In this document: positions 1-30,166 of the stretch, piece after piece
How the letters are laid out: the number at the start of each line of letters is the position of its first letter
Numbering within the stretch: position 1 is the first letter of the stretch
Source: Catellatospora paridis
GTDB lineage: Bacteria > Actinomycetota > Actinomycetes > Mycobacteriales > Micromonosporaceae
Direction: 5' to 3'
NCBI RefSeq assembly: GCF_009720365.1
Contig: NZ_WBZD01000017.1
Span: forward strand, 124,001 to 188,000
DNA length: 64,000 bases
The notes under the pieces: model-generated
The model's input: only the letters and a program-made list of their open reading frames with translations
What the model was told of the DNA's origin: nothing
The model's database searches: none
Translations under genes and position numbers: made by a program

Positions 1-305
1 AGGTCGAGGTGGAAGGCGTGGTACGAGCCGCCGTACACCGAGTCGAGGGTGAAGTGCGGGACGGCCGAGTCCTCGGGCGTGAACGCGAAGATCATGTGGC
101 TGTCCAGGTGGATCATCGGGACCACCAGGCCCACGTACACGACCTTGGCGACGGCCTCGCCGCGGAAGATCCGCACCGAGCCGACCGGGGCGGGCGACAT
201 CGGGCTGGTCAGCTCGGCCAGCGGCGTCTCCTGCGCGACCAGGTCGGGGTGGCGGGCGAGTAAACGTTGCAGGGTGCGCTCGCACAGGTCGGCGGGCAGG
301 CTCAC
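1..305 (-). CDS. Possible bilin-reductase-like protein, N-terminal part only
   Basis: The gene starts with GTG at 305, two bases after the TGA of the Rieske oxygenase gene, and runs off the window, so only about the first 100 residues are visible. No confident family can be named. The stretch containing PHFTLDSVYGG followed by FHLDL has the strand pattern seen in ferredoxin-dependent bilin reductases and red chlorophyll catabolite reductase, where an acidic strand sits in the bilin pocket. That would fit its position as last visible gene of an operon that also encodes an RCCR-like protein (2479-3279) and a PaO-like Rieske protein. The reading frame is certain; the family call is inference from pattern and context. 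Confidence 0.5.
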   Translation of the reverse strand, partial: MSLPADLCERTLQRLLARHPDLVAQETPLAELTSPMSPAPVGSVRIFRGEAVAKVVYVGLVVPMIHLDSHMIFAFTPEDSAVPHFTLDSVYGGSYHAFHLD

Positions 306-307
306 GG

Positions 308-1510
308 TCACTCCTCAGGGGTGGAATCGGACTCGGCCGCCGCGGCCGCGTCCCAGGCGGCCTGGACGGTCGGGTGCTCGCCCCGGGCCTTGTGCACCCA
401 GGCGCGGGCCAGCTCGGGGTTCTCCCGGCGGGCCGGGGACGCGATCACGGTCGCGGTGCGGCGCGGCACGTCGCCGGTGATGCTGTCCTCCTCGGACAGC
501 AGCCAGCCCTTCTCGGCCAGCTCCTGGCGGCGGCGGCGGTAGTGCACCGCGATCAGGTCGCTCTTGATGTGCAGCTCCGCGCCCAGGTCGAAGGGCAGCA
601 GCTCGGGCCGCACCTTGTTCACGACCTCCGCGTCCTCGTAGAAGATCTTCAGGGTGCGGCTGATCGCGTTCTTGTCGGCCCACCTGCCGGTGAAGAAGGT
701 GCGCAGTGCGACCCACTTGACCAGCGTGGTCGTCTCGTCGATCGGGATGTTCGTGTCGTAGATGATCAGCTCGCCGATCGGCAGCCGAACGTGCAGCTTG
801 ATCATGTTGGGCAGCATCCAGCCCGCCGACGTGCGCACCGGTGGCCGGTTGTTCAGATCGCCCTTGTTGCGGTTCAGCGCCGCCCAGATGCCCTTCGGCC
901 GCGGCGGGTACAGGTCCACCGTGGCGAACGCCGACCACTCGTCGGGGGTCTCCAGCTCGTACTCGGCGACCTCGGGGCGCTCCGGGTTGCCGAACGCGCC
1001 CGCGTGCACGAACGGCGCGTGCGCGATGTCGCAGCCGTTCTCCAGGATGCGCTCGTAGTTGGCCTGCCACAGGAACTCGCCGGTCACCGCCCGGAAGCGG
1101 CCGCCGTTCTCCTTCAGGTCGTCGAACTCCGGCCACACCGGGATCGGCGGGCGCTCGGACTCGGGCAGGTCGCCCATGAACACCCAGACGAAGCCGTACT
1201 TCTCCTGCACCGGGTACGAGTCGACGCGGGCCTTCTTCGGGATGCCGCGGCCGGGCAGGTTGGCCGGGATCTTCGTGACCTGGCCGTCGGCGTCGTACTC
1301 CCAGCCGTGGTACGGACAGACGAGGCAGCCGTCCTTGGTCCAGCCGCCGGACAGCGCCGCGCCGCGGTGCACGCACAGGTCGCTCAGCGCGACCGGGCGG
1401 CCCTTCGGGGTGCGGTAGAGGGCCAGGTGCTGGCCGAGCACGGTGACGCGGGCCGGCTTGACGGTGACCCGGTCGGCGAACTCGACCGCGTACCAGAAGT
1501 TCTTCAACAT
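308..1510 (-). CDS. Rieske non-heme iron oxygenase, pheophorbide a oxygenase/VanA-like
   Basis: This 400-residue protein has an N-terminal Rieske [2Fe-2S] domain with C46-x-H48 and C65-x2-H68, and a catalytic domain with a mononuclear-iron triad D161-x2-H164-x4-H169. The arrangement is that of the single-component-oxygenase branch that includes vanillate demethylase VanA and the plant pheophorbide a oxygenase/TIC55 family; such enzymes take electrons from a separate reductase. ATG at 1510 follows the upstream hydrolase stop by three bases, and GTG of the next gene lies two bases after its TGA, so it sits in a tight operon. No dedicated reductase is adjacent; the FAD oxidoreductase at 28255-28935 is a candidate. 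The substrate is inferred from the RCCR-like neighbour. Confidence 0.85.
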   Translation of the reverse strand: MLKNFWYAVEFADRVTVKPARVTVLGQHLALYRTPKGRPVALSDLCVHRGAALSGGWTKDGCLVCPYHGWEYDADGQVTKIPANLPGRGIPKKARVDSYPVQEKYGFVWVFMGDLPESERPPIPVWPEFDDLKENGGRFRAVTGEFLWQANYERILENGCDIAHAPFVHAGAFGNPERPEVAEYELETPDEWSAFATVDLYPPRPKGIWAALNRNKGDLNNRPPVRTSAGWMLPNMIKLHVRLPIGELIIYDTNIPIDETTTLVKWVALRTFFTGRWADKNAISRTLKIFYEDAEVVNKVRPELLPFDLGAELHIKSDLIAVHYRRRRQELAEKGWLLSEEDSITGDVPRRTATVIASPARRENPELARAWVHKARGEHPTVQAAWDAAAAAESDSTPEE

Positions 1511-1513
1511 CGG

Positions 1514-2482
1514 TTACCTCCGCTGGATCGACGCGACGCCGCCGTGGTCGGCGAGTTTGTCCCATTCGGTATACGACGCCTGATCGCCGGTGAGGTGCAT
1601 CCGGCAGAACGTGCCGAGCAGGTCGGCCAGCAGTTCGCGGTGGGCCGCCGGGTCGCCGTCGGCGGGCTGATCGAGGAAGGCGCGCGCGGCGGTGTGGTCG
1701 ACCGGGTGCACGATCGCGAAGTGGTTCGCCCCGGCCAGACGTACCAGCGCGTTGTCGCCTCCCCGGTCGGGCAGGGCCTCGTCGAAGGTCCGCGTGATCG
1801 GGTCGCGGCGGGTGGCCGCGTCCTCGCCGTAGCGGTCCGCCGAGCCGTTGATGACGCCGTCGTTGGTGCCCGCGACCAGCAGCACCGGGCAGTCGGCCTG
1901 GGCCGGCAGCACGGTGCCCGCGGGCCAGCCCAGCATGGTGGCGACCATGGTGTGCGCGCCGTAGGTCGCCACGGCCTTGACCTCGGTCACGAACCGCGCG
2001 GACTGGAGTGCGACCGTGCCGCCCGCCGAGTGTCCGATCAGTGCGACCCGTTGCAGGTCGAGCAGCCCGGCGACCGGCCCGGTCATCGCGGCCAGCGCGT
2101 CGAGCACCGGCCGCAGCGACGGCGTGGTGGGCCGCTTGCCATAGCCGTCGGGGCGGGCCGCGTCGAGGTCCACGCCCGGCGTGATGCCGTGCAGGCCGCC
2201 GAACAGCGTGCCCACCCAGTCGTAGGTCACCGCGACGATGCCCTGCTCGGCCAGCCGCACCGCGAGCCAGCGGTACGCCTCCTGGCCCACGTTCACCCCG
2301 GACACGATCACCGCCACCGGGTACGGCGCACCGGCCGGGTCGGCGGCCATCACGCCGGACAGGCGCTCGCGGTCCGAGCCGTCGGGCCGCGCCGGGTAGT
2401 AGACGCGCAGGTGCGCGGTGTCGAACGGGGCCTCGTGGCCCGGGATCGTCGTGGCCCACCAGACCGAGCGGATCACCTTCAC
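1514..2482 (-). CDS. Alpha/beta hydrolase, chlorophyllase-like
   Basis: This 322-residue protein has a serine-hydrolase nucleophile elbow GHSAGG with S152, an oxyanion region near SGVNVGQEAY, a later acidic strand VLLVAGTNDG and a C-terminal histidine in GANHFAIVHP. It has no signal peptide, so it is probably cytoplasmic. GTG at 2482 overlaps the upstream TGA by four bases (GTGA), which fixes the start. The fold and the YPVAVIVSG / GIVAVTYDW spacing resemble chlorophyllase and PET-hydrolase-like families. In this operon it could remove an ester, such as the phytyl or the C13 carboxymethyl ester, from a chlorophyll derivative. That role is inference; a general esterase is equally compatible with the sequence alone. 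Confidence 0.75.
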   Translation of the reverse strand: MKVIRSVWWATTIPGHEAPFDTAHLRVYYPARPDGSDRERLSGVMAADPAGAPYPVAVIVSGVNVGQEAYRWLAVRLAEQGIVAVTYDWVGTLFGGLHGITPGVDLDAARPDGYGKRPTTPSLRPVLDALAAMTGPVAGLLDLQRVALIGHSAGGTVALQSARFVTEVKAVATYGAHTMVATMLGWPAGTVLPAQADCPVLLVAGTNDGVINGSADRYGEDAATRRDPITRTFDEALPDRGGDNALVRLAGANHFAIVHPVDHTAARAFLDQPADGDPAAHRELLADLLGTFCRMHLTGDQASYTEWDKLADHGGVASIQRR

Positions 2483-3279
2483 GGCCGGGCCAGCTTCCGG
2501 TCGCCGCCCCACAGGCCGCGGACCAGCTTGTCCGTGGTCTCCTGGCCGAAGAAGCGCACACCCATCACGTTGGCCGGGTCGCGTTCGGCGATGTTGCGCC
2601 GGATGCGCAGGTCGGTCTCGGCCAGCGCGGCGCGCTCGTCCTGCGGCACCGGCGGGGCCTCGTCGACCCAGCGCAGCCACCGGTCCACGTGCTCGTGGGT
2701 GAGCTTGCGGACGATGTCGAGGTTGCGCGCGCTGCGACCGAACGAGTAGCAGTACGCCGTCGGGCTCAGGCTGGCGCGGATGAAGCCGGCCCGGCTGACG
2801 AAGTACTCGAACTCGGGGTCGGCGCGGTGGGCCAGCCAGTCGGCGTCGAGTGGGGCGTAGTAGCTGTCGTAGTACTCGCCGTCCGCCATGAGGTTCACCC
2901 GGGGCACGGAGTCGAGGTAGAACCAGCCCTCCGGCCACACCAGCAGGGCCAGGCCCAGGTGCGGCACCTTGACCTGTGGACCCAGCCAGACGGTCAGGTG
3001 CAGATTGGCGAAGCTCGCCGACGGGTTGCCCAGCCAGGAGTGCACCATCCAGTCGACCTCGGGTCCGCTGTACGCGGCCAGCGAGCCGCCGGGCCCGTCC
3101 GGGTACTGCCCGTACGACTCCAGCTCCAGAGTCGACGGATCACGCCGTAACTCGAACCGGGCGTCGATCTTCGCCTTCAGCTCGGCCAGCAGCTCCTGGT
3201 ACAGGTGGAACGTCTCGTGCACGTCGACGGCGGGGGAGTTGTCCACCATGTCCTCGACGTGCCGCAGGGTCTCGGCCAC
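2479..3279 (-). CDS. Red chlorophyll catabolite reductase (RCCR)-like protein
   Basis: This 266-residue protein shows, in the same order as plant RCCR, a GS..Y...EVDWMVHSWLG segment (about 65-84), a VPHL strand (105-108), YLDSVPRVNL followed by EYYDSYY (121-141), FIRASLSPTAY (166-176), an EHVDRWLRWVDE helix and a closing FGQETTDKLV helix. Plant RCCR has GSW, LILDLPHRKDL, FVRSAFSPTAS and FGEEVSSRVV at matching places (compared from memory). RCCR reduces the red linear tetrapyrrole formed by pheophorbide a oxygenase, using ferredoxin. GTG at 3279 follows an AAAGG site, seven bases after the nitrilase stop. The adjacent PaO-like gene recreates the plant enzyme pair. Actual bilin substrate is unknown. 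Confidence 0.72.
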   Translation of the reverse strand: MAETLRHVEDMVDNSPAVDVHETFHLYQELLAELKAKIDARFELRRDPSTLELESYGQYPDGPGGSLAAYSGPEVDWMVHSWLGNPSASFANLHLTVWLGPQVKVPHLGLALLVWPEGWFYLDSVPRVNLMADGEYYDSYYAPLDADWLAHRADPEFEYFVSRAGFIRASLSPTAYCYSFGRSARNLDIVRKLTHEHVDRWLRWVDEAPPVPQDERAALAETDLRIRRNIAERDPANVMGVRFFGQETTDKLVRGLWGGDRKLARP

Positions 3280-3286
3280 TGCCGGT

Positions 3287-4984
3287 CTACCTTTCTGTGA
3301 GGGCTTGCACGAGCCGCCAGGGGCGGCCGTCGACGAGGTCCGTCTGCCGCGACACCTGCCGGTTGGCAGCCTGTGCCGGTGCGACATCGGCCCGCCCGGA
3401 CACCTGACCGGCGGGCACGGTGGTGACGACCGGGTGGCTGATCCGCCCCGTGAACGGGCCCTGCCAAGCGGTCCACAACGTGAAGTCGGGCGACAACGCG
3501 AACACCGCGCTGTCCTGATCGAGCGGCGCGACGGCGACCACGTTGAGCCGGTTCTCCGCGGCCCGCTCCGGCAGCCCGAGGCTCAACTCCCACTGCTCCG
3601 CGGCCGAGAACGGCACCGCCACCACATCGGCGTCGGCGAGCGCGGCCAGCCGGAACACCTCGGGAAAGATCGAGTCAGCCCCGGACACCAGGGCCAGCCG
3701 TCCCCACGCCAGCTGCACCACACGCACCGCGTCGGCTTCTCCGAAGTCGTGCGCGGATGCCGCCGTCGCTCGGGTGGCTGCCGTCGTGGCAGACCCGGCC
3801 ATCGCGGGGGAAGCCGCTGCGGCTGCGCCGTCGGTTCGACTGCCGGCGAGCTGTCCGGCAGTTGCGGCAGGGTGCAGCACAGGCTGGTGGGCGACCTCGC
3901 CGTTGGCGTCGACGAGGACCGGGCCGTTCGTCGTCGCGGTGACCGCGTGGGCGCTGGTGCCGTCGAGGGCGGCGGCGAGCAGCGTCGGGTCGGTCTCGGT
4001 GGTGACGATGAGGCGGGCACCTGCGGCGGCGGCGCGGGCGGTCTCGCGGACCACGGTCGCGGTGTCCCCGCGGACGACCGCGACGGACAGCGTTTCCGCA
4101 CCGGATCCGTGGCGGCGGCCGGTCGGCGGGGCGGCGATGGGGGCGTAGAGCTCCGGGCGGCGGGCGGCGAAGATGTCGGTGCCGTCGGGGCGGCGCTTGT
4201 CGTCGGCCAGCGACGGGTCGATGTCGGCGATCACGACGGCCTCGCCGGTGCGCGGTCCCTTCGCGACCACCGTGCCGTCGGGGGCGACGATCTGACTCTC
4301 CCCGGCCCCGTGCAGCCACTCCGCGGGCACGCCCAGTGCGGCGCTGAGCCGGGGCAGGTGCTCCTCGGGCAGCAGCGGGCCGACCTTGTTGGCGGCGACG
4401 ACCCAGACCTTGTTCTCGGCCGCGCGGACCGGGATGTGCAGGCTCGCCTCGTCGGTGGCGAACGAGTTGAGGCTGTTGAGCAGCACCTGCGCACCGCGCA
4501 GGGCGAGCCCGCGGGCCACCTCGTTGATGACGCCCTCCATGCAGGCGTACATGCCGAGGCGGCCGAGCGGGGTGTCCAGCACCGGCCCGACCTCGCCGGC
4601 CGGGTCGAGGTGGTCGTTCTCCGCGCCCATCAGCGTCTGCTTGTCGCACTGGCCGAGCACCGTGCCGTCCGGTCCGAACATGAAGTTCGTGCCGCCGGTG
4701 CGCCCGTCCGGGTGCGCGTGCGTGACGTTGATCTTCACGTACGCCTTGTGCTTGCGGGCGCGCTCGGCGACCGCGGTCAGGAACGGGTCACCGGGCCGGG
4801 TCGCGATGCGGTGCGCCTGCGCGCGATCGGCGTAGTAGGACAGGTGGTTGCAGAACTCGGGCAGGACGATCAGCTGCGCACCCCGGGTCGCGGCCTCGTC
4901 GATCAGGCGCAGGCAGGCGGCGAGATTGGCGTCGACGTCCTGCGACGCCGCGAGCTGCACCGCGGCAACCCGTACTGGAGCCAT
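3287..4984 (-). CDS. Nitrilase-superfamily carbon-nitrogen hydrolase with degenerate second domain
   Basis: The protein has 565 residues, twice the usual length. Residues 1-270 are a complete nitrilase domain with the catalytic triad E43 (LPEFCNH), K115 (GQCDKQTL) and C148 (MYACMEG), expected to hydrolyse an amide, carbamoyl or nitrile group. Residues from about 295 to 540 repeat the nitrilase strand-helix pattern (VRVVQLAWGRLALVSG, ADVVAVPFSAAEQWE) but lack a convincing triad, suggesting a decayed duplicate kept for assembly or regulation. A Ser/Ala-rich linker near 385-415 splits this half. ATG at 4984 is the first gene of the operon, directly downstream of the operator at 5007-5021. The substrate is not deducible. 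Confidence 0.8.
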   Translation of the reverse strand: MAPVRVAAVQLAASQDVDANLAACLRLIDEAATRGAQLIVLPEFCNHLSYYADRAQAHRIATRPGDPFLTAVAERARKHKAYVKINVTHAHPDGRTGGTNFMFGPDGTVLGQCDKQTLMGAENDHLDPAGEVGPVLDTPLGRLGMYACMEGVINEVARGLALRGAQVLLNSLNSFATDEASLHIPVRAAENKVWVVAANKVGPLLPEEHLPRLSAALGVPAEWLHGAGESQIVAPDGTVVAKGPRTGEAVVIADIDPSLADDKRRPDGTDIFAARRPELYAPIAAPPTGRRHGSGAETLSVAVVRGDTATVVRETARAAAAGARLIVTTETDPTLLAAALDGTSAHAVTATTNGPVLVDANGEVAHQPVLHPAATAGQLAGSRTDGAAAAASPAMAGSATTAATRATAASAHDFGEADAVRVVQLAWGRLALVSGADSIFPEVFRLAALADADVVAVPFSAAEQWELSLGLPERAAENRLNVVAVAPLDQDSAVFALSPDFTLWTAWQGPFTGRISHPVVTTVPAGQVSGRADVAPAQAANRQVSRQTDLVDGRPWRLVQALTER

Positions 4985-5021: not shown

Positions 5022-5072
5022 CGAAACTACACTCGCTGGGGCGTTTACAACAGGGGTCGACCGGAGGTCGTG

Positions 5073-5354
5073 ATGCTTTCTCACGTGGTGCTGATGACGT
5101 TCACCGACGCAGACGATGCTGCCAAGGCGAAGGATCTTTTGGAAGGGCTGGTCGGCGTCGTTCCGCAGGTCCGAACGCTCCAGGCGCACCTGGACGAGCT
5201 GCACACCCCGGTCTCGGCGCACCTGTGCCTGATCACGACCCATGAGGACGAGGCCGACCTGCGCGGATACCAGGAGCACCCGGCGCATCTGGAGCTGGCG
5301 CAGTGGCTGCGCCCGCGCCTGGCCGCCCGGACGGTCGTCGACTTCAGCCAGTGA
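5073..5354 (+). CDS. Dabb-domain (stress-responsive A/B barrel) protein
   Basis: This 93-residue protein opens with MLSHVVLMTF and contains the HLCLITTHEDEADLRGYQEHPAH segment typical of the dimeric alpha/beta-barrel Dabb family, whose members include small polyketide cyclases and proteins of unknown role. GGAGG at 5063-5067 lies five bases before ATG 5073; a GTG at 5070 is in frame but too close to the ribosome site. It diverges from the nitrilase operon and shares operator site 1, so it is probably co-regulated. It ends two bases from the stop of the convergent hydrolase gene. A catalytic role on a pathway intermediate is possible, but no active-site residue can be assigned. Confidence 0.75.
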   Translation: MLSHVVLMTFTDADDAAKAKDLLEGLVGVVPQVRTLQAHLDELHTPVSAHLCLITTHEDEADLRGYQEHPAHLELAQWLRPRLAARTVVDFSQ

Positions 5355-8480: not shown

Positions 8481-9929
8481 TCATGACGCCGGGTACGCGT
8501 TCGCCGCCGCGCCCGCCCCGCCCGCCCGGAACGCGGCCGGTGCGTGTACGACGCAGGTCTGCGCGTACTCGGCGATGCCCTCGTCGCCGTACTCGCGGCC
8601 GTAGCCGGACCGTTTCACCCCGCCGAACGGCGCGCGCAGCGACATGCCGGTGCGGTTGTGCGTGTTGACGAACACGAACCCGGCGTCCAGCCGCCGTGCC
8701 ACGGCGAACGCCCGCTCCTCGTCGGCCGACCACACCGACGCGCCGAGCCCCAGCTCACCCGCGTTCGCGCGGGCCACGAGGTCGTCCTCGTCGCGGTAGG
8801 ACAGCAGCGGCACGGTCGGCCCGAACTGCTCCTCGGCGACCACCGGGGCGTCCTCGGGCACGCCGGTGACCAGCGCCGGCGCGACGAAGTGCCCGGCCCG
8901 CAGGTCGGTGCCCGGATCGGCCCGGCCCACCGGCAGCGCCCGCCCGCCGCGCGCGACCGCGTCCTCGACCAGGCCGGTGATCCGGGCCGCCGCCTCGGCG
9001 GTCACCACCGGGCCCATGCTCACCCCGGCGGCGAGCGGATCGCCCAGGCACAGCACCTCGTCGGCGGCCTGGCGGTACGCGGCGACGAACTCGTCGTGGC
9101 GGGCCGCGGGCACGTACAGCCGTTTGGCCGCCATGCACACCTGCCCGCTGGTCGCGAACGAGGCCATGACCAGCCGCCGCATCGGTTCCGGGGACAGGTC
9201 GGCGTCGTCGAGCAGCAGCACCGGATCGTTGCCGCCCAGCTCCAGCACGGTCGGCGTGGTGTGGGTCGCGGCCGCCGCCGCGACGACCCGTGCCGTCGCG
9301 GCCCCGCCGGTGAACGCGACCTTGCCGACCAGCGGGTGCCCGACCAGCGCGGCACCCGCCTCGGCGTCGCCGTGCAGCACCTGCAGCACCGCGGCCGGCA
9401 GCGCCGACGACATCAGTCGCACCGTTCGGTCGACGGCCAGCGGGGCGAGCGGCGACGGCTTCACCACGACCGCGTTGCCCGCCGCCAGCGCCGGGGCGAT
9501 CTTCAGGAAGGACAGGATGATCGGGGCGTTCCACGGGGTGATCGCCGCGACCACGCCGTACGGCCGGCGGCGCAGCAGCAGCCGTCCCGCCGCGTCGTCG
9601 AGCGCCGTGTCGGCGAGCACCCGCGGGGCCTGGTCGGCCACCCAGCGCAGGAACGTCAGCGCGAAACCGAGCTCACCGCGGCAGTCGGCCAGCACCTTGC
9701 CCGACTCGCGGGCCAGCAGCTCGGCGAGCACCGCCAGGTCCGGCTCGACCGCGTCGGCGGCGGCCCGCAGCGCGGCCACCCGCTCCGCGGTCTCCACGCA
9801 CGCCCAGCCCCGCTGCGCCGCGTCGGCGGCCCGCACCACGGCGTCGACCCGTGCCGGGTTCGCCGACGGCACGGTGCCGACCAGCTCGTACACCCGCGCC
9901 GGGTTGTAGCGCGCGATCCGCTCGCTCAT
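8481..9929 (-). CDS. Aldehyde dehydrogenase family protein
   Basis: This 482-residue protein has the complete catalytic set: N134 (TPWNAP), E230 (TVLELGGNDP) and C265 (SGQVCMAAK). It also has a C-terminal PFGGVKRSGYGREYG motif. It oxidises an aldehyde to an acid with NAD(P). ATG at 9929 overlaps by four bases the stop of a 29-codon micro-ORF, which itself overlaps the upstream monooxygenase stop. It is therefore probably translated in a chain from the monooxygenase. SSADH/benzaldehyde-type enzymes are the closest in feel; the substrate cannot be read from sequence. Confidence 0.88.
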   Translation of the reverse strand: MSERIARYNPARVYELVGTVPSANPARVDAVVRAADAAQRGWACVETAERVAALRAAADAVEPDLAVLAELLARESGKVLADCRGELGFALTFLRWVADQAPRVLADTALDDAAGRLLLRRRPYGVVAAITPWNAPIILSFLKIAPALAAGNAVVVKPSPLAPLAVDRTVRLMSSALPAAVLQVLHGDAEAGAALVGHPLVGKVAFTGGAATARVVAAAAATHTTPTVLELGGNDPVLLLDDADLSPEPMRRLVMASFATSGQVCMAAKRLYVPAARHDEFVAAYRQAADEVLCLGDPLAAGVSMGPVVTAEAAARITGLVEDAVARGGRALPVGRADPGTDLRAGHFVAPALVTGVPEDAPVVAEEQFGPTVPLLSYRDEDDLVARANAGELGLGASVWSADEERAFAVARRLDAGFVFVNTHNRTGMSLRAPFGGVKRSGYGREYGDEGIAEYAQTCVVHAPAAFRAGGAGAAANAYPAS

Positions 9930-10015
9930 GCCGCCTCCCCGCCGCGCACGGCCCGCGAGCCCGGCCGCCCGCCGCGCACGGCCTGCGGGGCCGGTCGTTT
10001 ACCGCGGGCGCTCAC
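9926..10015 (-). CDS. Bridging micro-ORF (29 residues) between two operon genes
   Basis: It starts with GTG overlapping the monooxygenase TGA (GTGA) and ends with TGA overlapping the aldehyde dehydrogenase ATG (ATGA), so it spans the whole 82-base gap. The peptide is Arg/Gly/Pro-rich with a repeated AVRGG element. A GGGGAGG ribosome site lies at its 3' end for the next gene. The likely role is to carry ribosomes across the gap; a peptide function is not evident. Confidence 0.45.
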   Translation of the reverse strand: MSARGKRPAPQAVRGGRPGSRAVRGGEAA

Positions 10016-11157
10016 GCGGGCACCGGGCGCAGGGAGGAGATCATGCAGGCGCGCAGCAGGTGGGCGCGGGCGCGGGCCGGGTCGGCCGCGATGGCGCGGA
10101 TCTCGTCCAGGTACGCCGCGCGCGCCGCGGGCTCGGTGGCGGTGAGGCGCTGGTAGTTCTGGTGCGAGACGGTCTGCACGTACTCCAGCGCGATGCGGCG
10201 CCGCTGCGTCGTGGCCGGCCGGACCGCGCCGTCGCCGGTGACCAGCGCGCGGGCGTACGCCACCGCGTCGTGGATGCCCGAGTTCATGCCCAGCCCGCCC
10301 AGCGGGTTGTTGACGTGCGCGGCGTCCCCCGCCAGCAGCACCCGTCCGACCTGGAACGACTCGGCGACGCGCTGGTGTACGCGGTAGATGCTGGCGTGCG
10401 CGACCTGCCACGGCCGCCCCGGATCGGCGACCTGCCGCAGCCGCCCGTCGAGCCGGTCCAGCTCGTCGCGGTCGGGCGTGCCGTCGGGCGTCGGCAGCAG
10501 CACCCGCCAGTGATCCGGCGTACGCAGCAGCACCGACCAGTCCACCGGGTCGAACACGTAGTTGACCTCGGCGAGGTCGTCGAGCAGGCTCGGCAGGTCC
10601 TCGTCGGTGGACGCGACCAGGAAACGCTCCGGGTAGGTGATGCCCGCGAACTCCACGCCGAGCGAGCGGCGCACCGCCGAATGCGCCCCGTCGGCGGCGA
10701 TCAGCCAGCCGCCGCGCTCGGTCCGGCCGTCGGCGGCCCGGACCACCACGCCGTCGGCGACCTGGTCGACACCGGCCACCGGCCAGCCGAAGCGGACGAC
10801 ACCCCCGGCGGCTTCGACCTCGGCCAGCAGGATCGGGGTGAGTTTGGACTGCTCGCACTGCACCCGGTACGGGTACGGCGTGTCCCGGGCGAGCACGCCC
10901 AGGTCGAGCGTGGCGACGTGGCCTGCCCGGTCGCGGTGGGCGAACGTCGGCGCGATCAGGCCCCGGGCCAGCAGCGCGTCGACGACGCCCAGCTCGGCGA
11001 GCATCTCCAGGGTCGGCGGGTGGAACGTCGACGCCCGCGACTCGGCCGCCAGGCCGTCACCCGCCTCCAGCACGGTCACCGCGACACCCTGCCGCGCCAG
11101 CGCCAGCGCGGCGGTCAACCCGACCGGCCCCGCCCCGGCCACGATGATCCTGCTCAT
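10012..11157 (-). CDS. FAD-dependent aromatic-type monooxygenase (PheA/TfdB/UbiH-like)
   Basis: This 381-residue protein has the three motifs of class A flavoprotein hydroxylases: dinucleotide-binding GAGPVG (8-13), DGAHSAVRR (DG motif, about 156-164) and GRVLLAGDAAHVNNPLGGLGMN (GD motif with D278). These enzymes use NAD(P)H and O2 to hydroxylate aromatic or related rings, and some act on indoles or pyrrolic compounds. ATG 11157 follows GGGAGGAGAGGGC and overlaps a 26-residue micro-ORF by ATGA. It is shorter than the 500-600 of TfdB types. It lacks the C-terminal thioredoxin-like extension. Confidence 0.88.
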   Translation of the reverse strand: MSRIIVAGAGPVGLTAALALARQGVAVTVLEAGDGLAAESRASTFHPPTLEMLAELGVVDALLARGLIAPTFAHRDRAGHVATLDLGVLARDTPYPYRVQCEQSKLTPILLAEVEAAGGVVRFGWPVAGVDQVADGVVVRAADGRTERGGWLIAADGAHSAVRRSLGVEFAGITYPERFLVASTDEDLPSLLDDLAEVNYVFDPVDWSVLLRTPDHWRVLLPTPDGTPDRDELDRLDGRLRQVADPGRPWQVAHASIYRVHQRVAESFQVGRVLLAGDAAHVNNPLGGLGMNSGIHDAVAYARALVTGDGAVRPATTQRRRIALEYVQTVSHQNYQRLTATEPAARAAYLDEIRAIAADPARARAHLLRACMISSLRPVPA

Positions 11158-11234
11158 GCCCTCTCCTCCCGGCTTCCGGTCATGCTGCGTCGCTCGCTTT
11201 CGATGAGGGAGCGGGGTCGCGCCCGCTCCGCCAT
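11154..11234 (-). CDS. Leader micro-ORF (26 residues) upstream of the monooxygenase
   Basis: It starts with ATG at 11234 and ends ...SREERA with a TGA overlapping the monooxygenase ATG. The monooxygenase ribosome site (GGGAGGAGAGG) is inside its last codons. The left arm of a large inverted repeat starts four bases upstream of its ATG. No clear ribosome site of its own is visible. It could be a leader peptide or a remnant of a repeat cassette. Confidence 0.4.
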   Translation of the reverse strand: MAERARPRSLIESERRSMTGSREERA

Positions 11235-11316: not shown

Positions 11317-12171
11317 TCATCGGCTGTTCTTGGCGTCCAGGGCCAGGGCTTCGTCTTGGCCGACGAGCCCGGTGAACTCGGCCCAGGGCAGCCGGTCCGT
11401 GCTCGCCCTGCCCGCCGTGGCGATCTCCCGGTAGGCGCGGGCGGCGGCGTGCAGGGCGGCCAGCAACGGGGCGACCGGGTGCAGCACGAGGCGCACTCCC
11501 ACCGCGGCCAGCGCGGCATCGCTCGCGGCGACGGTGTGCCCCGCTGCCTCGGACCGGTTCAGCACCAGTGGCACGCCGGGCAGCGCCGCCTGGGCGCGGG
11601 CCAGCTCGTCGAGCCCGGACACACCCTCCAGGAACACCGCGTCCGCGCCGGCCTCGGCGTAGCTCCGACCACGGGCGATCGCGTCGTCCAACCCGGTCAC
11701 CGTGTACGCGTCGGTGCGCGCCACCACCACGATGCCGGTGCCGTCGGACACCACTGCCCGGATCTTGCGGGCGGCTGTGTCTGCGTCGACCAGTTCCTTG
11801 CCCGCGAGGTGGCCGCAGCGCTTCGGCATCACCTGGTCCTCCAGGTGCAGGCCGGACACGCCCGCCGCCGCGTAGCGCCTGGCCGTCCACACCGCCTGCA
11901 GCGCGTCGCCGTAGCCGGTGTCGGCGTCGGCCAGCAGCGGCACGCCGCTCAGCGCGGGCGTGATCCGGGCGGCGCGTTCGGCGATGTGCGTGCCGTGCAC
12001 GTAGCCCAGGTCGGGCAGCCCCAGGTCGAGGGCGGCGCAGGCGGCCCCGGACAGGTGCGCGGCCCGGTGCCCGGCGCGTACGGCCAGGGCCGCGGTGGGC
12101 GGGTCGTACACACCGGGCAGGTGGGTGACGCCGCCGGAGGCGAGCAGGGCCCGCAGCGCCGCGGCGGTCAC
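11317..12171 (-). CDS. Isocitrate lyase/PEP mutase superfamily protein (methylisocitrate-lyase-like)
   Basis: This 284-residue protein has the superfamily signature with the catalytic loop KRCGH (117-121, C119) and metal-binding DADTGYG (82-88), followed by LHLEDQ. The intact KRCGH loop indicates a C-C lyase (methylisocitrate, dimethylmalate or oxaloacetate type) rather than a mutase. GTG at 12171 overlaps the aldehyde dehydrogenase stop (GTGA), which decides the start. It is adjacent to CoA-pathway genes handling branched dicarboxylates, so a substituted malate or citrate is a reasonable substrate. Dimethylmalate lyase of nicotinate degraders belongs to this family. Confidence 0.87.
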   Translation of the reverse strand: MTAAALRALLASGGVTHLPGVYDPPTAALAVRAGHRAAHLSGAACAALDLGLPDLGYVHGTHIAERAARITPALSGVPLLADADTGYGDALQAVWTARRYAAAGVSGLHLEDQVMPKRCGHLAGKELVDADTAARKIRAVVSDGTGIVVVARTDAYTVTGLDDAIARGRSYAEAGADAVFLEGVSGLDELARAQAALPGVPLVLNRSEAAGHTVAASDAALAAVGVRLVLHPVAPLLAALHAAARAYREIATAGRASTDRLPWAEFTGLVGQDEALALDAKNSR

Positions 12172-13643
12172 GGGCGGCCGTGCAGCGCGAAGCCGCCCTC
12201 GACGCCGACGACCCGCGGGTTGGTGAAGAAGCGCAGCGTCTCGGCCGTGCCCTCCTCCGAGTATCCGGACAGCCCCCACGCCGGGCGCGGCGTCAACAGG
12301 TGCAGGCTCATCACGCTGGACCCGTTGACCTTCACCTCGCCCGCGCGCAGCCGCCGCGCGACCGCGAGCGCGGCCTGCTCGTCGGCGCCGGACACGTACG
12401 CCTCCAGCCCGTACGGCGTGCCGTTGGCCAGCGCCACGGCCTCGTCGACGGTCGTGTAGGTGTGTACGGCGGCGACCGGGCCGAAGATCTCGTGCGTGGT
12501 GTGCGCCGGTTCGACGCCGGTGACCAAGGTCGGGCTGAGGTAGTTGCCCCGATCGGGCACGGTCATCGGCGCGTGCGCGGTGCCGCCGTGGCCGACGAGC
12601 GCGTCGCGGGCCGCGGCGACCCGATCGCGGTGTCCGGAGTGGACCAGCGGGCCGAAGTCGGTGTCCGGGTCGAGCGGTGCGCCGACCCGGAGTGCGGCCA
12701 GCCGGGACAGGGTCGCGTCGAGGATCTCGGCGGCCCGGTCGGCGGGCACGATCAGGCGGCCCAGCGCCCGGCACCACTGCCCGTTGAGTGTGGTGAGCAG
12801 GTCGGCGGCGGCACGGGCGGCATCCGCGGTGTCCGCGTCGGGCAGCACCAGCAGCGGGTTGTTGCCGCCGAGTTCCAGCTGCACCGGCTTGATGTCGTAC
12901 GCGCAGGCCGCCGCGACGGCCCGACCGCCGGCCAGCCCGCCGGTGAACGACACGGCCCGCACCCGCGGGTCGCTTACCAGCCGCGTGCCGGTGTCCGCGT
13001 CGCCGTGCACGAGCTGGAACAGCCCGCCGGGCAGCCCCGCCTCGGCCAGCGCCGCGTGCACGGCCCGCGCCAGCAGTTGCGTGCCGTACGGGGCGTACTC
13101 GCTGGGTTTGACGATCGTGGGGCAGCCTGCCGCGAGCGCGTTGGCGGCCTTGTGCGCGGCCATCGGCGCGGGTGCGTTCCACGGCACCAGGCAGGCCGCC
13201 GGTCCCCAGGGCAGCCGGTCGACGTGGGCGAGGCGGCCGTCCTCGCGCGGCATCGCGCTGCTCAGCCAGCCGTCGCGCAGCTGCATCGCGGCCAGGCGGA
13301 ACGCGCCGCCGAGGATGACCGACAGCGGCATGGTCTGCGAGATCGGCACGCCGGTGGCGAACGACTCGATCGCGGCGATGTCGGCTCCGGCCGCCTCGAC
13401 CCGGGTCGCGACCGCGTCGAGCACGTCGGCGCGCTCGGTCGCGGGCAGGCCGGACCAGACGCCGGAGTCGTGCACCGCAGTCGCCGCGGCGACGGCCGCG
13501 TCGACCCGGGCGGGGTTGCTGCCCACGGCCGCGCCGACGGGCTCGCCGGTGGCCGGATCCTGCAGCGTGAAGCCGAGCGGGGCGGCACAGGCCTGCCATT
13601 GCCCGTCGACCAGGTCGGCGACGGCCTCGGGCCGGGCGCTCAC
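12168..13643 (-). CDS. Aldehyde dehydrogenase family protein
   Basis: This 491-residue protein has E257 (VQLELGGNNP) and the nucleophile C291 (LNGQWCRALGR). The surrounding sequence differs from the common QxC consensus, so this is a distinct subfamily from the enzyme at 8481-9929. GTG at 13643 overlaps the preceding gene's TGA by four bases, and its own stop overlaps the isocitrate-lyase-like gene. An oxidised product could feed the lyase. The substrate is unknown. Confidence 0.87.
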   Translation of the reverse strand: MSARPEAVADLVDGQWQACAAPLGFTLQDPATGEPVGAAVGSNPARVDAAVAAATAVHDSGVWSGLPATERADVLDAVATRVEAAGADIAAIESFATGVPISQTMPLSVILGGAFRLAAMQLRDGWLSSAMPREDGRLAHVDRLPWGPAACLVPWNAPAPMAAHKAANALAAGCPTIVKPSEYAPYGTQLLARAVHAALAEAGLPGGLFQLVHGDADTGTRLVSDPRVRAVSFTGGLAGGRAVAAACAYDIKPVQLELGGNNPLLVLPDADTADAARAAADLLTTLNGQWCRALGRLIVPADRAAEILDATLSRLAALRVGAPLDPDTDFGPLVHSGHRDRVAAARDALVGHGGTAHAPMTVPDRGNYLSPTLVTGVEPAHTTHEIFGPVAAVHTYTTVDEAVALANGTPYGLEAYVSGADEQAALAVARRLRAGEVKVNGSSVMSLHLLTPRPAWGLSGYSEEGTAETLRFFTNPRVVGVEGGFALHGRP

Positions 13644-14926
13644 TTGGGCACGCTCGCGAACAGGTCGTTGGAGCGGTCGGCGGTGATCATGCCGGCCGCC
13701 TCCAGCCGGCCGCGCTCCGGCGGGAAGGTCATGACCAGGCCCATCGACAGGTCACGCAGGGCGCGGCCCATGGTCCCGTGCAGGGTCGCGCCGGACGTGC
13801 CGCACGCCTTGACCGCGCCGACCGCGACCGCGAACGCGTTCTCGCAGATGGAGCCCTTGGCCAGCCGCCACTGCCGGTAGACCTCGGCCTTGGGCGCGAT
13901 GGGCGGCTCGGACGTCTCCAGCAGCAGCTGGCGGCGCAGCCACAGGTACGCCGTCTCCAGGTTCTCGGTCATGTCCCCGATGATCACCTGGTGCATGGGG
14001 GACTCGGCAATGGGCCGTCCGGTGTCGGCGAACGTCTTGCTGGTCAGCCGCTGCAGCGTCTCGTCATAGACGCCCTGGGCGCAGCCGACGTACACGGCGG
14101 TGATGGCGAGCTGGTTGCCGACGAAGCTGCCCCGGCTGCACTGCAGCATCTTCACGAACGCGCCGGGCACGGTCAGCGCCTCGGTCGCGGGCACCCACAC
14201 GTCGCGCAGGGTGATGCCGTGGTTGGCCGAGCCGCGCATGCCCAGGCCGTCCCAGGCCGGACGAGAGGCGACGCCCTCGGCCTCGCGCGGCACCAGGAAC
14301 AGGGCCAGCCCGGCGGCCGTGTCGGTGCCGTCGAGCCGGGCGGTGACCAGGTAGGTGTCGGCGACGCCGGTGGCGCAGCCGAACGACTTCTCGCCGGTGA
14401 TCAGCCAGCCCTCGACGCCGTCGCGGGTCGCCGGGCGGGCCGTGGTGGAGATGGCGATGTTGGCGCTCGCGCTCTTGACCGACTCGCTGGCGAAGTTGGC
14501 CAGCCACATGCCGCCCGCCATGCGGCGCAGCACCTGCTCGGCGAAGGCCCGCACCACCGGCCCGTCGCCGTCGTCGAACAGCCCGGCGTCGATCGCCTCC
14601 AGCGGCAGCAGCCCGCGCGACGCGCTGGTGTTGTGGAAGAAGAAGGCCAGCGCGGTCGACGGGCAGGCGCTGCCCATGGCGAACGTCGCCGCGGCCAGGT
14701 CGCGCAGTCCCCCGCCGAGACCGCCGTACTCCTGCGGCACGACCAGGCCGAGCAGCCCCGCCTCGCGCAGCAGCGCGACGTGGCCGACCGGGAACTGCCC
14801 GGACGCGTCGGCCTGCTCGGCCGCGGCGCGCAGCGCGGGCAGCACCGCTTCCACGCGGGCCGCGCGGTCGAGTTCGGCGTCGGTCATGTCGTCGACGAGG
14901 CGCTGGCCGATGAGCCGGTCTGCCAT
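13640..14926 (-). CDS. Acyl-CoA-dehydrogenase-fold flavoprotein, atypical
   Basis: This 428-residue protein has the acyl-CoA dehydrogenase domain order: an N-terminal helical domain with GLLGLVVPQEYGGLGGG, a middle beta domain and a C-terminal helical bundle. The usual mid-domain LTEP.AGSD motif is replaced by ASESVKSASANIA. Near the C terminus, LRDLSMGLVMTFPPERGR replaces the segment that normally carries the catalytic Glu. With a flavin reductase domain encoded directly upstream, it may be the oxygenase of a two-component flavin monooxygenase of the DszC/HpaB structural class instead of a dehydrogenase. ATG 14926 has AAGGGAG eight bases upstream; the in-frame GTG at 14935 does not. Confidence 0.8.
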   Translation of the reverse strand: MADRLIGQRLVDDMTDAELDRAARVEAVLPALRAAAEQADASGQFPVGHVALLREAGLLGLVVPQEYGGLGGGLRDLAAATFAMGSACPSTALAFFFHNTSASRGLLPLEAIDAGLFDDGDGPVVRAFAEQVLRRMAGGMWLANFASESVKSASANIAISTTARPATRDGVEGWLITGEKSFGCATGVADTYLVTARLDGTDTAAGLALFLVPREAEGVASRPAWDGLGMRGSANHGITLRDVWVPATEALTVPGAFVKMLQCSRGSFVGNQLAITAVYVGCAQGVYDETLQRLTSKTFADTGRPIAESPMHQVIIGDMTENLETAYLWLRRQLLLETSEPPIAPKAEVYRQWRLAKGSICENAFAVAVGAVKACGTSGATLHGTMGRALRDLSMGLVMTFPPERGRLEAAGMITADRSNDLFASVPK

Positions 14927-14962
14927 TTCTTGCACTCCCTTGTGGATGGTCAGGCGAGTTCT

Positions 14963-15949
14963 TCAGGGGCTGAGGCCGGGCAGCGGCGCGCATGCCACAC
15001 CGAGTTGCCGGGCCAGCAGCAGCAGGTCCTGCGCGGGCAGGCCGCCGGAACCGGGGTCGAGCACGGTGTCGAAGCGGTGGACCCCGCTCTTCATCGCCAC
15101 CAGCGCGTTGACCAGACCGAGGCCGTGGTGCGCGAGCAGCCGCACCCGCACCGGCGCGGGTCGGGTGCGCACCACCGCGTCCTGTAGCACCCGGCGCACC
15201 TGCAGCGGGGACGCCGGGCTGGTCTCGGCGCAGCCCAGCGTCACACCCGGCAGCCCGGCCAGCGCGTCGATCGCGGCGAGCACGTCGGCCTCGCGCGCGG
15301 GGGAGAAGGCATCGGCGACGTACGCCAGCACGGGCGCGTGCGCCGCCGCGGCCGCCACCTGCGCGACGTCGCCGTGGTCGCGGACGAGCAGCGTGTGCGC
15401 CTGTTCGGCGGCGGGATCGTCGAGCACCGTCATGGTGATCTCCTCGGGCAGCGGGTCGGCCAGCTGGCCCCACGCGCGCGAGTGGAACAGCAGCGGCGCG
15501 GTGATCCGCGGCACCGCCGCGTCGACGACCCGGCCGACGAAGATGGTGTGGTCGCCGCCGGGGTACGCGTGCTCGACGGTGCAGTCCAGGCGGCCGGTCG
15601 CGTCGGCGAGCATGGGGCAGCCGGTCGGCCCGGTCAGCCAGTCGAGTCCGGCGAAGCGGTCCTCGCCCGGTCGCGCGCCCGCGAAGCGGCGGCCGATCTC
15701 GGCCTGGTCCTTGCCGAGGAAGCTCAGCGCGAACACTCCTGCCTGCTCGATCATCAGCCGGGTGGGCAGATGATTGCCCAGGCAGACCGAGACCAGTGGC
15801 GGATCGAGGCTGACCGAGGAGAATGAGCTGGCGGTCATGCCGTGGGGGCGGCGGGCGCCGTCCGGCTCGGTCACCATGGTGGTGACCACGGCGACGCCGC
15901 TGGGCCACTGGCTCAGCACCGAACGCAGGTGTGCGCCGTCCACCGCCAT
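14963..15949 (-). CDS. Flavin reductase fused to an HMG-CoA-lyase-like segment
   Basis: Residues 5-160 are a flavin reductase-like (FMN-binding split barrel) domain: SQWPSGVAVVTTM, HGMTASSFSSVSLDPPLVSVCLG, FALSFLGKDQ and the HTIFVGRVVDA strand. Residues about 185-320 look like the C-terminal half of a DRE-TIM (HMG-CoA lyase-type) barrel: LLAHHGLGLVNALVAMKSGVHRFDTVLDPGSGGLPAQDLLLLARQLG aligns with the H-x-H...GG segment of the true HMG-CoA lyase at 40936, but the first metal histidine pattern is altered and the catalytic GGC cysteine is absent. It probably supplies reduced flavin to the neighbouring ACAD-fold protein. The fused half is likely non-catalytic. It is the first gene of the minus operon, with operator 15969-15983 upstream. 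Confidence 0.75.
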   Translation of the reverse strand: MAVDGAHLRSVLSQWPSGVAVVTTMVTEPDGARRPHGMTASSFSSVSLDPPLVSVCLGNHLPTRLMIEQAGVFALSFLGKDQAEIGRRFAGARPGEDRFAGLDWLTGPTGCPMLADATGRLDCTVEHAYPGGDHTIFVGRVVDAAVPRITAPLLFHSRAWGQLADPLPEEITMTVLDDPAAEQAHTLLVRDHGDVAQVAAAAAHAPVLAYVADAFSPAREADVLAAIDALAGLPGVTLGCAETSPASPLQVRRVLQDAVVRTRPAPVRVRLLAHHGLGLVNALVAMKSGVHRFDTVLDPGSGGLPAQDLLLLARQLGVACAPLPGLSP

Positions 15950-15968
15950 CGCCCTCCGTTTCGCATTA

Positions 15969-15983
15969 GGAAACGCTGTTGCC
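15969..15983. promoter_or_regulatory. Putative IclR-type operator, site 3
   Basis: GGAAAC-GCT-GTTGCC has one mismatch from the palindrome. It covers the predicted start point of the minus-strand operon and lies 106 bases upstream of the iclR-type gene, placing both under possible control of that regulator. Confidence 0.65.
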
Positions 15984-15987
15984 GTGA

Positions 15988-16016
15988 AGGTAACGACTCG
16001 GTCGCGCACCTGTCAA
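15988..16016 (-). promoter_or_regulatory. Probable sigma-70-like promoter of the 8481-15949 operon
   Basis: On the minus strand TTGACA (16016-16011) is followed after 17 bases by TTACCT (15993-15988). Transcription would start near 15981, inside the operator at 15969-15983, which fits repression. Confidence 0.5.
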
Positions 16017-28935: not shown

Positions 28936-29019
28936 CAGGTGGTCCTCCTCGTGGGGCGCTGCCGCACATCCTCGCCCGTCCCGGCCGGTCCGGTCCAGCA
29001 TCCCCGGGCGGGCGGCGGA

Positions 29020-30036: not shown

Positions 30037-30166
30037 GTCGGCGCGGCCAGAGCCGGGTCCGATGTGGCCGACCTACTGTTCGTGGTGAATGCAACCGTTT
30101 GGGGGTATTGGGCGACCGCACGGGCTGACAATCGAGCGGGACCATGGCGTCGGCGGAGGGTGCACG

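What the first reader, a model, noticed from the sequence alone, without database searches (positions are those of the whole stretch)
1..4984. Bacterial PaO/RCCR-like operon: a possible chlorophyll or linear-tetrapyrrole breakdown system
One tight minus-strand operon encodes an RCCR-like protein next to a pheophorbide a oxygenase-like Rieske protein, plus a chlorophyllase-like hydrolase and a nitrilase. In plants these two enzyme types act in sequence to open pheophorbide and reduce the red linear product. Seeing both side by side in an actinobacterium suggests soil degradation of chlorophyll-derived pigments or another bilin. Seen: the motifs and operon structure. Inferred: the substrate.
Basis: partly seen in the sequence, partly recalled or inferred. 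Interest (0 to 1): 0.95.

Follow-up and report, generated by a model that had tools for sequence, protein, structure and literature searches.

The report
Bacterial operon for linear-tetrapyrrole (bilin) breakdown
Soil actinobacteria share a conserved gene cluster built around two relatives of the plant enzyme that detoxifies chlorophyll's red breakdown product, an oxygenase and a binding protein, which probably breaks down chlorophyll- or heme-derived pigments.

Summary
The minus-strand operon is real; its RCCR-like gene (2479-3279) passes Pfam's RCC_reductase cut-off and matches solved Arabidopsis RCCR. The gene cut by the window edge (1-311) is a second, divergent RCCR: its AlphaFold model's first 43 PDB hits are RCCR and bilin reductases. 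A quartet RCCR-A/Rieske/RCCR-B/lipocalin-like protein occurs in 77 of 80 related loci examined (eight genes collinear in 70) and in two more deep lineages; in 397 genomes of the order the Rieske orthologue occurs only in the six with RCCR. The operon's SDR is the genome's best match to plant chlorophyll b reductase (sequence recalled). Flavin monooxygenases, aldehyde dehydrogenases, lactam/imide-type hydrolases and a mesaconate/itaconate-like CoA module lie around it, so catabolism is likely. Not supported: the Rieske lacks the PaO domain (VanA_C instead) and the hydrolase is no chlorophyllase by Pfam. RCCR-A has Ala at plant Glu154, RCCR-B Asp. Best reading: aerobic catabolism of a linear tetrapyrrole; chlorophyll or heme origin undecided. 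The paper searches listed found no description. New variant of a known kind.

The parts
1..311 (-). RCCR-B, start of the gene; runs off the window (full gene L002 13598-14311, 237 aa)
   Evidence: paralogue of RCCR-A; Pfam RCC_reductase 15.1 bits, below cut-off; AF2 model pLDDT 95.3, top Foldseek hit RCCR 3agc E 7.1e-12
308..1510 (-). Rieske [2Fe-2S] oxygenase, VanA_C type
   Evidence: Pfam Rieske 76.3 and VanA_C 99.8 bits; conserved Rieske ligand motifs C-H/C-H and mononuclear-iron motif N..E.N..D..H.PFVH
1514..2482 (-). alpha/beta hydrolase (GHSAGG), possible esterase
   Evidence: Pfam Hydrolase_4 and DLH over cut-off; Chlorophyllase below cut-off
2479..3279 (-). RCCR-A, red chlorophyll catabolite reductase family
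   Evidence: Pfam PF06405 over cut-off; PDB RCCR E 3.8e-16
3287..4984 (-). nitrilase-superfamily C-N hydrolase, first gene of the operon, second half degenerate
   Evidence: Pfam CN_hydrolase 142.7 bits; conserved VLPEFC, DK, YACMEG motifs
5070..5354 (+). divergent A/B-barrel (Dabb) protein
   Evidence: Pfam Dabb 57 bits; found in 49 of 80 loci
8481..9929 (-). aldehyde dehydrogenase 1
   Evidence: Pfam Aldedh; 68 of 80 loci within the flank held
10012..11160 (-). FAD-dependent monooxygenase
   Evidence: Pfam FAD_binding_3; 63 of 80 loci
11317..12171 (-). methylisocitrate-lyase/PEP-mutase-type lyase
   Evidence: Pfam PEP_mutase; best NCBIfam PrpB 222.8 bits, below its cut-off; 19 of 80 loci
12168..13643 (-). 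aldehyde dehydrogenase 2
   Evidence: Pfam Aldedh; 60 of 80 loci
13640..14935 (-). acyl-CoA-dehydrogenase-fold protein, perhaps an FMN monooxygenase component
   Evidence: Pfam; 48 of 80 loci
14963..16009 (-). flavin reductase domain protein
   Evidence: Pfam Flavin_Reduct; 28 of 80 loci
16090..16902 (+). IclR-family regulator, divergent
   Evidence: Pfam IclR_C/HTH_IclR; 26 of 80 loci; also in deep lineages L098 and L092
18584..19102 (+). mesaconyl-CoA-hydratase-like MaoC protein
   Evidence: Pfam MC_hydratase 80.2 bits, cut-off 26.5; NCBIfam RipB/Ich 181 bits, below its cut-off
20088..21287 (+). class III CoA-transferase
   Evidence: Pfam CoA_transf_3
21271..22617 (+). MmgE/PrpD-family protein
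   Evidence: Pfam MmgE_PrpD_N and _C
27352..28236 (+). CitE-type malyl-CoA-like lyase
   Evidence: Pfam HpcH_HpaI; CitE-type genes also near RCCR in L098, L099, L092, G193, G214
32248..33072 (-). second MmgE/PrpD-type gene (N-terminal region as matched)
   Evidence: Pfam MmgE_PrpD_N
33096..34013 (-). cyclase-family (PF04199) amide/lactam-type hydrolase
   Evidence: Pfam Cyclase 92 bits; near RCCR in G193, G214, G641, L092, but homologues also in RCCR-less genomes
34013..35224 (-). second class III CoA-transferase
   Evidence: Pfam
35287..36714 (+). allantoinase/dihydropyrimidinase-type cyclic amidohydrolase
   Evidence: Pfam Amidohydro_1; NCBIfam up to 242 bits, below cut-offs; relatives near RCCR in G193, G214, L092
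40936..43067 (.). HMG-CoA-lyase-like gene (-) and divergent third CoA-transferase (+)
   Evidence: NCBIfam HMG-CoA lyase 286.5 bits over cut-off 246; the pair also near RCCR in G214, G641 and G681, the lyase alone in L092

Best explanation
A conserved actinobacterial catabolic cluster for a linear tetrapyrrole. Proposed working: the Rieske oxygenase uses O2 to open or oxidise the tetrapyrrole; RCCR-A and RCCR-B, two ancient paralogues found together in 78 of 80 loci, carry out ferredoxin-type reductions of the resulting bilin, either as a heteromeric pair or on two different double bonds; the lipocalin-like protein binds or shields the photoactive intermediate; the SDR reduces a formyl or keto group; the alpha/beta hydrolase and nitrilase remove ester and amide/lactam groups; the upstream flavin monooxygenases, aldehyde dehydrogenases, cyclic-amide hydrolases and the mesaconate/itaconate-like CoA module turn pyrrole-derived fragments into central metabolites under an IclR regulator. 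Shown: family membership or fold of the proteins, conservation and co-occurrence of the quartet. Inferred: substrate, order of steps, electron donor. Within this reading I put chlorophyll-derived pigment at about 0.35 and heme-derived or other bilins at about 0.3.
For: RCCR-A over the Pfam cut-off and matching solved RCCR; RCCR-B model: first 43 Foldseek hits all RCCR or bilin reductases; Arabidopsis RCCR positions P149, D168, R172, W254, D280, R284 and G301 at least 99% conserved in both paralogues; tree splits A from B at 100/99 with the deep lineages on both sides. Quartet in 77 of 80 loci, eight genes collinear in 70 of 80, quartet again in L098 and L099; Rieske orthologue in exactly the 6 of 397 genomes with RCCR. 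The 316-aa protein's model resembles DUF3598/BFA1, read as two lipocalin-like barrels. The SDR is the best of 34 genome matches to recalled NYC1, 97.6 against 48.5 bits; the operon-SDR profile scores recalled NYC1 185.7 bits, above the two genome SDRs and the flank ORFs put in the same pool (128.3 and lower). Catabolic surroundings recur.
Against: No activity or substrate data. The Rieske protein is not of the PaO family; 10 of 19 members also match KshA_C weakly, and the best solved relatives are saxitoxin-pathway, methylxanthine and dicamba oxygenases. RCCR-A has Ala at the Glu154 position. RCCR-B's profile reaches solved RCCR only at E 0.007. No ferredoxin, heme oxygenase or dechelatase among the operon proteins scanned; the genome's heme oxygenase lies elsewhere. 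Cyclase homologues occur in many genomes without RCCR, so the CoA/imide module may serve other pathways. Of the ten proteins only HMG-CoA lyase passed a curated cut-off among the rows shown.
Confidence: 0.64

Rival explanations
1. The RCCR/bilin-reductase fold has been repurposed: the cluster degrades a non-tetrapyrrole compound (a steroid, terpenoid, aromatic or N-heterocycle), and the two RCCR-like proteins reduce an intermediate of that pathway.
For: Rieske protein is VanA_C type with non-tetrapyrrole solved relatives; thiolase-like plus ChsH2-like pair and acyl-CoA dehydrogenases nearby; RCCR-A lacks Glu154; no heme oxygenase in the operon.
Against: Of the 50 solved chains shown for the RCCR-B model, all but two Ycf2-FtsHi chains are RCCR, bilin reductases or coproporphyrinogen oxidases, which act on tetrapyrroles (substrates from general knowledge). 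An NYC1-like SDR and a lipocalin-like protein also fit pigment chemistry better.
Confidence: 0.2
2. The cluster makes or modifies a bilin-like metabolite (pigment, signal or chromophore) instead of degrading one.
For: The bacterial bilin reductases studied in PMC10151467 make phytobilins (passages); carotenoid-type genes next door show pigment biosynthesis.
Against: IclR regulator, aldehyde dehydrogenases, CoA-transferases, lyases and amide hydrolases recur around the quartet. None of the neighbours scanned with Pfam is a phytochrome, V4R or globin protein, but not every gene of the window was scanned.
Confidence: 0.08
3. A bacterial version of the plant PaO/RCCR pathway in the strict sense: pheophorbide a is opened by the Rieske protein to RCC and reduced by RCCR, as the first reader proposed (a narrower form of the best explanation, so the odds overlap).
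For: RCCR plus Rieske pairing; NYC1-like SDR; the recalled PAO sequence finds only this Rieske protein in the genome, 54.1 bits, next 12.3.
Against: PaO domain absent, though PMC2716323 says this is general for bacterial PaO-like sequences (passages); Glu154 absent in RCCR-A; chlorophyllase not supported; Staygreen not found, its control silent.
Confidence: 0.22

Closest known systems
Plant PaO/phyllobilin pathway (PAO, RCCR, NYC1/NOL)
   Same: A Rieske oxygenase with an RCCR-family reductase and an NYC1-like SDR; [quoted passage not shown]
   Different: Two RCCR paralogues, VanA_C-type Rieske without the PaO domain, no recognised chlorophyllase, added lipocalin-like protein, and a CoA-type cluster around it that plants lack (last point from general knowledge)
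Ferredoxin-dependent bilin reductases (PcyA, PebA/B, HY2) and heterotroph pre-PcyA clusters
   Same: Fold; RCCR-B has Asp where Arabidopsis RCCR has Glu154, by recall the position of the bilin-reductase catalytic Asp (PcyA Asp105)
   Different: RCCR-A falls below the Fe_bilin_red cut-off (17.2 against 31); none of the neighbours scanned is a globin, V4R or heme oxygenase protein as in the pre-PcyA clusters of PMC10151467 (passages)
Cyanobacterial RCCR-like genes (Nostoc punctiforme Npun_R3277 and Npun_R3279, side by side)
   Same: Bacterial RCCR-family genes in neighbouring pairs (PMC2716323, passages)
   Different: The word actinobacteria does not occur in that paper's main text, and the passages seen describe no Rieske-linked operon; whether the Nostoc pair is orthologous to A and B could not be tested here
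BFA1 / DUF3598 proteins of chloroplasts and cyanobacteria
   Same: Model of the 316-aa protein resembles 5yvf and 2o62
   Different: 10-13% identity and TM 0.52-0.58 normalised by the query; no Pfam match

Membership tests
RCC reductase (RCCR) | Pfam PF06405 curated cut-off (24.9 bits) | tested here: met
   RCCR-A 52.2 bits; RCCR-B only 15.1, not met for B
RCC reductase (RCCR) | RCCR/bilin-reductase fold | tested here: met
   RCCR-B model: top nine hits RCCR, then bilin reductases to rank 43; RCCR-A by profile only, E 3.8e-16
RCC reductase (RCCR) | Glu154 (catalytic role recalled) | tested here: not met
   Ala in 99% of 81 RCCR-A; Asp in all 79 RCCR-B
RCC reductase (RCCR) | Asp291 (catalytic role recalled) | tested here: inconclusive
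   an invariant Asp in both paralogues aligns with D293 in one alignment, with D291 for RCCR-A in another
RCC reductase (RCCR) | reduces RCC to pFCC | not testable with these tools
   needs enzyme assay
Pheophorbide a oxygenase (PaO) | Rieske and mononuclear-iron ligand motifs | tested here: met
   conserved in 78 sequences
Pheophorbide a oxygenase (PaO) | PaO C-terminal domain PF08417 | tested here: not met
   0 of 19 members, VanA_C in 19 of 19; none in own genome, 2 of 14 control genomes ring, 1 over the cut-off
Ferredoxin-dependent bilin reductase | Pfam PF05996 cut-off (31 bits) | tested here: not met
   RCCR-A 17.2 bits; not listed for RCCR-B at E up to 1
Chlorophyllase | Pfam PF07224 cut-off (26 bits) | tested here: not met
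   12.8 bits
NYC1/NOL chlorophyll b reductase | closest SDR subgroup by sequence | tested here: inconclusive
Maleate cis-trans isomerase | two catalytic cysteines (recalled) | tested here: not met
   AMDase/EutA-like protein has conserved QCGTNLSM but MGMSAETF without Cys at the other site

The most novel reading that the evidence does not exclude
The cluster is a complete aerobic route by which non-photosynthetic soil bacteria mineralise chlorophyll (or its phyllobilins): Rieske and paired RCCRs open and reduce the pigment, amide hydrolases open the pyrrole-derived lactams and maleimides, and a mesaconate/itaconate-like CoA module feeds the carbon into central metabolism; the plant RCCR and NYC1 steps would then share ancestry with bacterial pigment catabolism.
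Probability: 0.22. Interest if true: 0.95.

Novelty: new variant of a known kind. Interest (0 to 1): 0.82.

Why it matters
Chlorophyll and heme pigments are made and destroyed on a vast scale, yet I know of no described enzymatic route by which bacteria finish them off aerobically in soil (general knowledge, plus the searches). RCCR is treated as a land-plant enzyme with odd cyanobacterial relatives; a widespread actinobacterial operon with two RCCR paralogues and its own Rieske oxygenase gives a testable system in cultured strains and bears on where the plant pathway came from.

Tried and rejected
Maleate-isomerase role for the last operon gene: considered because it would complete a maleimide route; weakened, since the conserved protein lacks one of the two cysteines that I recall as required.

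Exclusive link of the cyclase/CoA module with RCCR: rejected. Cyclase matches at E 1e-20 or better in 153 of 397 order genomes, many at 50-57% identity without RCCR; only the three same-family RCCR genomes reach 68-70%, the two others 53-54%.

Chlorophyllase and PaO labels: rejected by Pfam. Staygreen search: inconclusive, the control was silent. TspO (window 6034-6510) as part of the system: found in 4 of 80 loci, so rejected as conserved. Plasmid carriage: no match to RCCR-A in the plasmid collection. PDB profile search with the 316-aa protein found nothing credible. A PDB search with the SDR at 1e-25 found nothing and was repeated at a looser limit.

Limits: the genome-contig scan confirmed 110 relatives but kept 80; the other 30 were not examined. 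Alignments A4-A6 used 55, 54 and 57 sequences, a selection of those; the tree used 25 of the 80 loci plus the window, L098 and L099; the Rieske Pfam scan 19 sequences. Flanks were 10 kb or less, so counts for outer genes are lower bounds. In some searches only six and four candidates per genome were scored. 'DUF2269' in my scripts is a label by eye; Pfam found no family there. Gene calls in L092, L098, L099 and beyond 27 kb in the window came from a crude GC3-based script. The Nostoc RCCR pair could not be fetched.
Full report
What is there. The first five minus-strand genes of the window form a tight operon: nitrilase, RCCR-A, alpha/beta hydrolase, Rieske oxygenase and, cut by the window edge, a second RCCR-like gene. 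The neighbouring sequence of the same contig (L002) shows the operon going on: RCCR-B (237 aa), a 316-aa protein without a Pfam family, an SDR, a membrane protein and an AMDase/EutA-like protein. The host is probably a Catellatospora: RCCR-A is 97% identical to that of two Catellatospora species.

RCCR-A is a real RCCR-family protein: 52.2 bits against a Pfam cut-off of 24.9, Arabidopsis RCCR in the PDB at 3.9e-7 from one sequence and 3.8e-16 from a 57-sequence profile, the next different protein being a plastid bilin reductase at 1e-8. It is the only PF06405 match in the 9-Mb genome. RCCR-B is a paralogue (25% identity, E 1e-9). It stays below Pfam's cut-off (15.1 bits) and its profile reaches solved RCCR only weakly (E 0.007), but its AlphaFold model (pLDDT 95) hits nine RCCR chains first; hits 1-43 are all RCCR or bilin reductases, followed by two chains of a chloroplast Ycf2-FtsHi complex and, among the 50 shown, coproporphyrinogen oxidases and one more bilin reductase.

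Conservation. A scan of genome contigs with the RCCR-A profile confirmed 110 relatives, of which the best 80 were kept and studied: Micromonosporaceae, Thermomonosporaceae, Streptosporangiaceae, Nocardiaceae, some Streptomycetaceae and one Acidimicrobiales MAG (family names of a part of them). RCCR-A, Rieske, RCCR-B and the 316-aa protein occur together in 77 of 80; all eight genes (without the variable membrane gene) stand on one strand in one order in 70 of 80; the Rieske gene lies on the same strand within 1.5 kb of the end of RCCR-A in 78 of 80, one of these (L043) only a fragment. RCCR-B is found in 78 of 80; L056 has RCCR-A alone and L043 a remnant. Two further deep lineages, from an even draw of 396 genomes of the phylum (3 with RCCR-A, one of them the own genome), carry the quartet as neighbours (L098, L099). 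In a tree of 28 A, 28 B and the Arabidopsis fragment the split between A and B has 100/99 support, and the deep lineages lie on both sides: the duplication is old and both copies have been kept together. The Arabidopsis branch is very long, so its place beside A is unsure.

Specificity of the pairing. In 397 genomes of the order PF06405 rings in 6. The Rieske protein finds full-length relatives of 57-84% identity in exactly those 6; all other matches listed are at most 42% identical (119 of 397 genomes have some match at E 1e-20). This clade of Rieske proteins therefore goes with RCCR.

What kind of Rieske. It carries the Rieske and mononuclear-iron motifs, matches VanA_C in 19 of 19 members tested, KshA_C weakly in 10 and PaO in none; its best solved relatives are SxtDIOX/SxtT, NdmA and DdmC. 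So it may do what PaO does, but it is not of the PaO family.

Active sites. Aligned with Arabidopsis RCCR, both paralogues keep P149, D168, R172, W254, D280, R284, an Asp near D291/D293 and G301; at Glu154, whose catalytic role I recall, RCCR-A has Ala (99% of 81) and RCCR-B Asp (all 79). I read this as a division of labour: B keeps the acid, as bilin reductases do (recalled), A lost it. A heterodimer or two consecutive reductions would explain why they are so rarely separated. This is inference.

Other operon members. The model of the 316-aa protein (pLDDT 92) resembles chloroplast BFA1 and a cyanobacterial DUF3598 protein, which I read as two lipocalin-like barrels: a fold fit for carrying a bilin. 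The SDR is by a wide margin the genome's best match to recalled NYC1 (97.6 bits, next 48.5, of 34 matches); the operon-SDR profile scores recalled NYC1 at 185.7 bits, against 128.3 and 123.2 for the two other genome SDRs that I put in the same pool with flank ORFs. Against this, FabG-type SDRs of the PDB match the operon SDR at up to 93.7 bits.

Wider cluster. Upstream, aldehyde dehydrogenase 1, an FAD monooxygenase, aldehyde dehydrogenase 2, an acyl-CoA-dehydrogenase-like protein and a flavin reductase are found in 68, 63, 60, 48 and 28 of 80 loci, beside an IclR regulator in 26 (flanks limited to 10 kb). Further along the window lie a mesaconyl-CoA-hydratase-like protein over its Pfam cut-off, CoA-transferases, MmgE/PrpD proteins, a CitE-type lyase, an HMG-CoA lyase, a cyclase-family hydrolase and an allantoinase/dihydropyrimidinase-type hydrolase. 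Parts of this set stand within about 30 kb of the quartet in Micromonospora (G193), Nocardia (G214), G641, G681 and the Acidimicrobiales MAG; G641 also has hydantoinase A/B, and G681 showed no cyclase in the stretch held. The cyclase occurs in many RCCR-less genomes too, so this module is associated, not exclusive. Chemically it would suit 2-methyl-3-alkyl maleimides and lactams, the expected pieces of broken tetrapyrroles; that link is my inference.

Chlorophyll or heme. For chlorophyll: RCCR-A is nearer RCCR than bilin reductases, and the SDR is NYC1-like. Against a strict plant-like pathway: no PaO domain, no chlorophyllase, Staygreen not found with a silent control. A heme oxygenase exists elsewhere in the genome, so heme-derived bilin is available. 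I leave this open.

Literature. Searches gave no report of such an operon in titles and abstract starts; the library lacks most subscription papers. PMC10151467 (outline and passages) uses RCCR as outgroup to bilin reductases and mentions Schekmanbacteria sequences. PMC4950323 (passages) describes the PaO/RCCR steps. PMC2716323 (passages) reports RCCR-family genes in Nostoc and Anabaena, two of them side by side in Nostoc punctiforme, and says that bacterial PaO-like sequences generally lack the PaO motif. Other papers were seen only in the listings.

Verdict. A real, old and widespread actinobacterial system that I did not find described; most likely linear-tetrapyrrole catabolism (0.64), chlorophyll origin possible but not shown.

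Noticed in passing
L002 2092-10258 (left of the window on the same contig): Carotenoid-type gene set (polyprenyl synthase-, CrtI- and CrtB-like genes by eye, P450 by Pfam) with a MerR/B12-binding regulator, possibly light-responsive, right next to the RCCR operon.
   Followed up: partly
window 6034-6510 (+): TspO/MBR membrane protein (Pfam 158 bits); such proteins bind tetrapyrroles (recalled). Found in only 4 of 80 RCCR loci.
   Followed up: partly
L092 13799-16726: Acidimicrobiales MAG has further small genes beside the quartet, three of them scanned without Pfam match, one weakly like the 316-aa lipocalin-like protein.
   Followed up: partly
L043 and L056: Actinoplanes couchii keeps RCCR-A with only remnants of nitrilase and Rieske; Nonomuraea corallina has RCCR-A alone: cases of operon loss.
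   Followed up: no
L063-L090 (several Nocardia): A second AMDase/EutA-like gene about 55-58% identical to the window's lies within a few kb of the operon.
   Followed up: no
window 30089-31597 (+): Sodium:alanine symporter family protein (Pfam 488 bits) inside the wider cluster, a possible importer.
   Followed up: no
RCCR-B model, ranks 44-45: Two chains of the chloroplast Ycf2/Orf2971-FtsHi motor complex are hit by the RCCR/bilin-reductase fold model.
   Followed up: no
window 24695-26187 (+): Thiolase-like and ChsH2-like (DUF35) gene pair, as in sterol side-chain retro-aldol cleavage (recalled).
   Followed up: no
window 28255-29001 (-): Protein with an oxidoreductase NAD-binding domain (Pfam 27 bits), a possible electron-transfer partner for the Rieske or RCCR proteins.
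   Followed up: no
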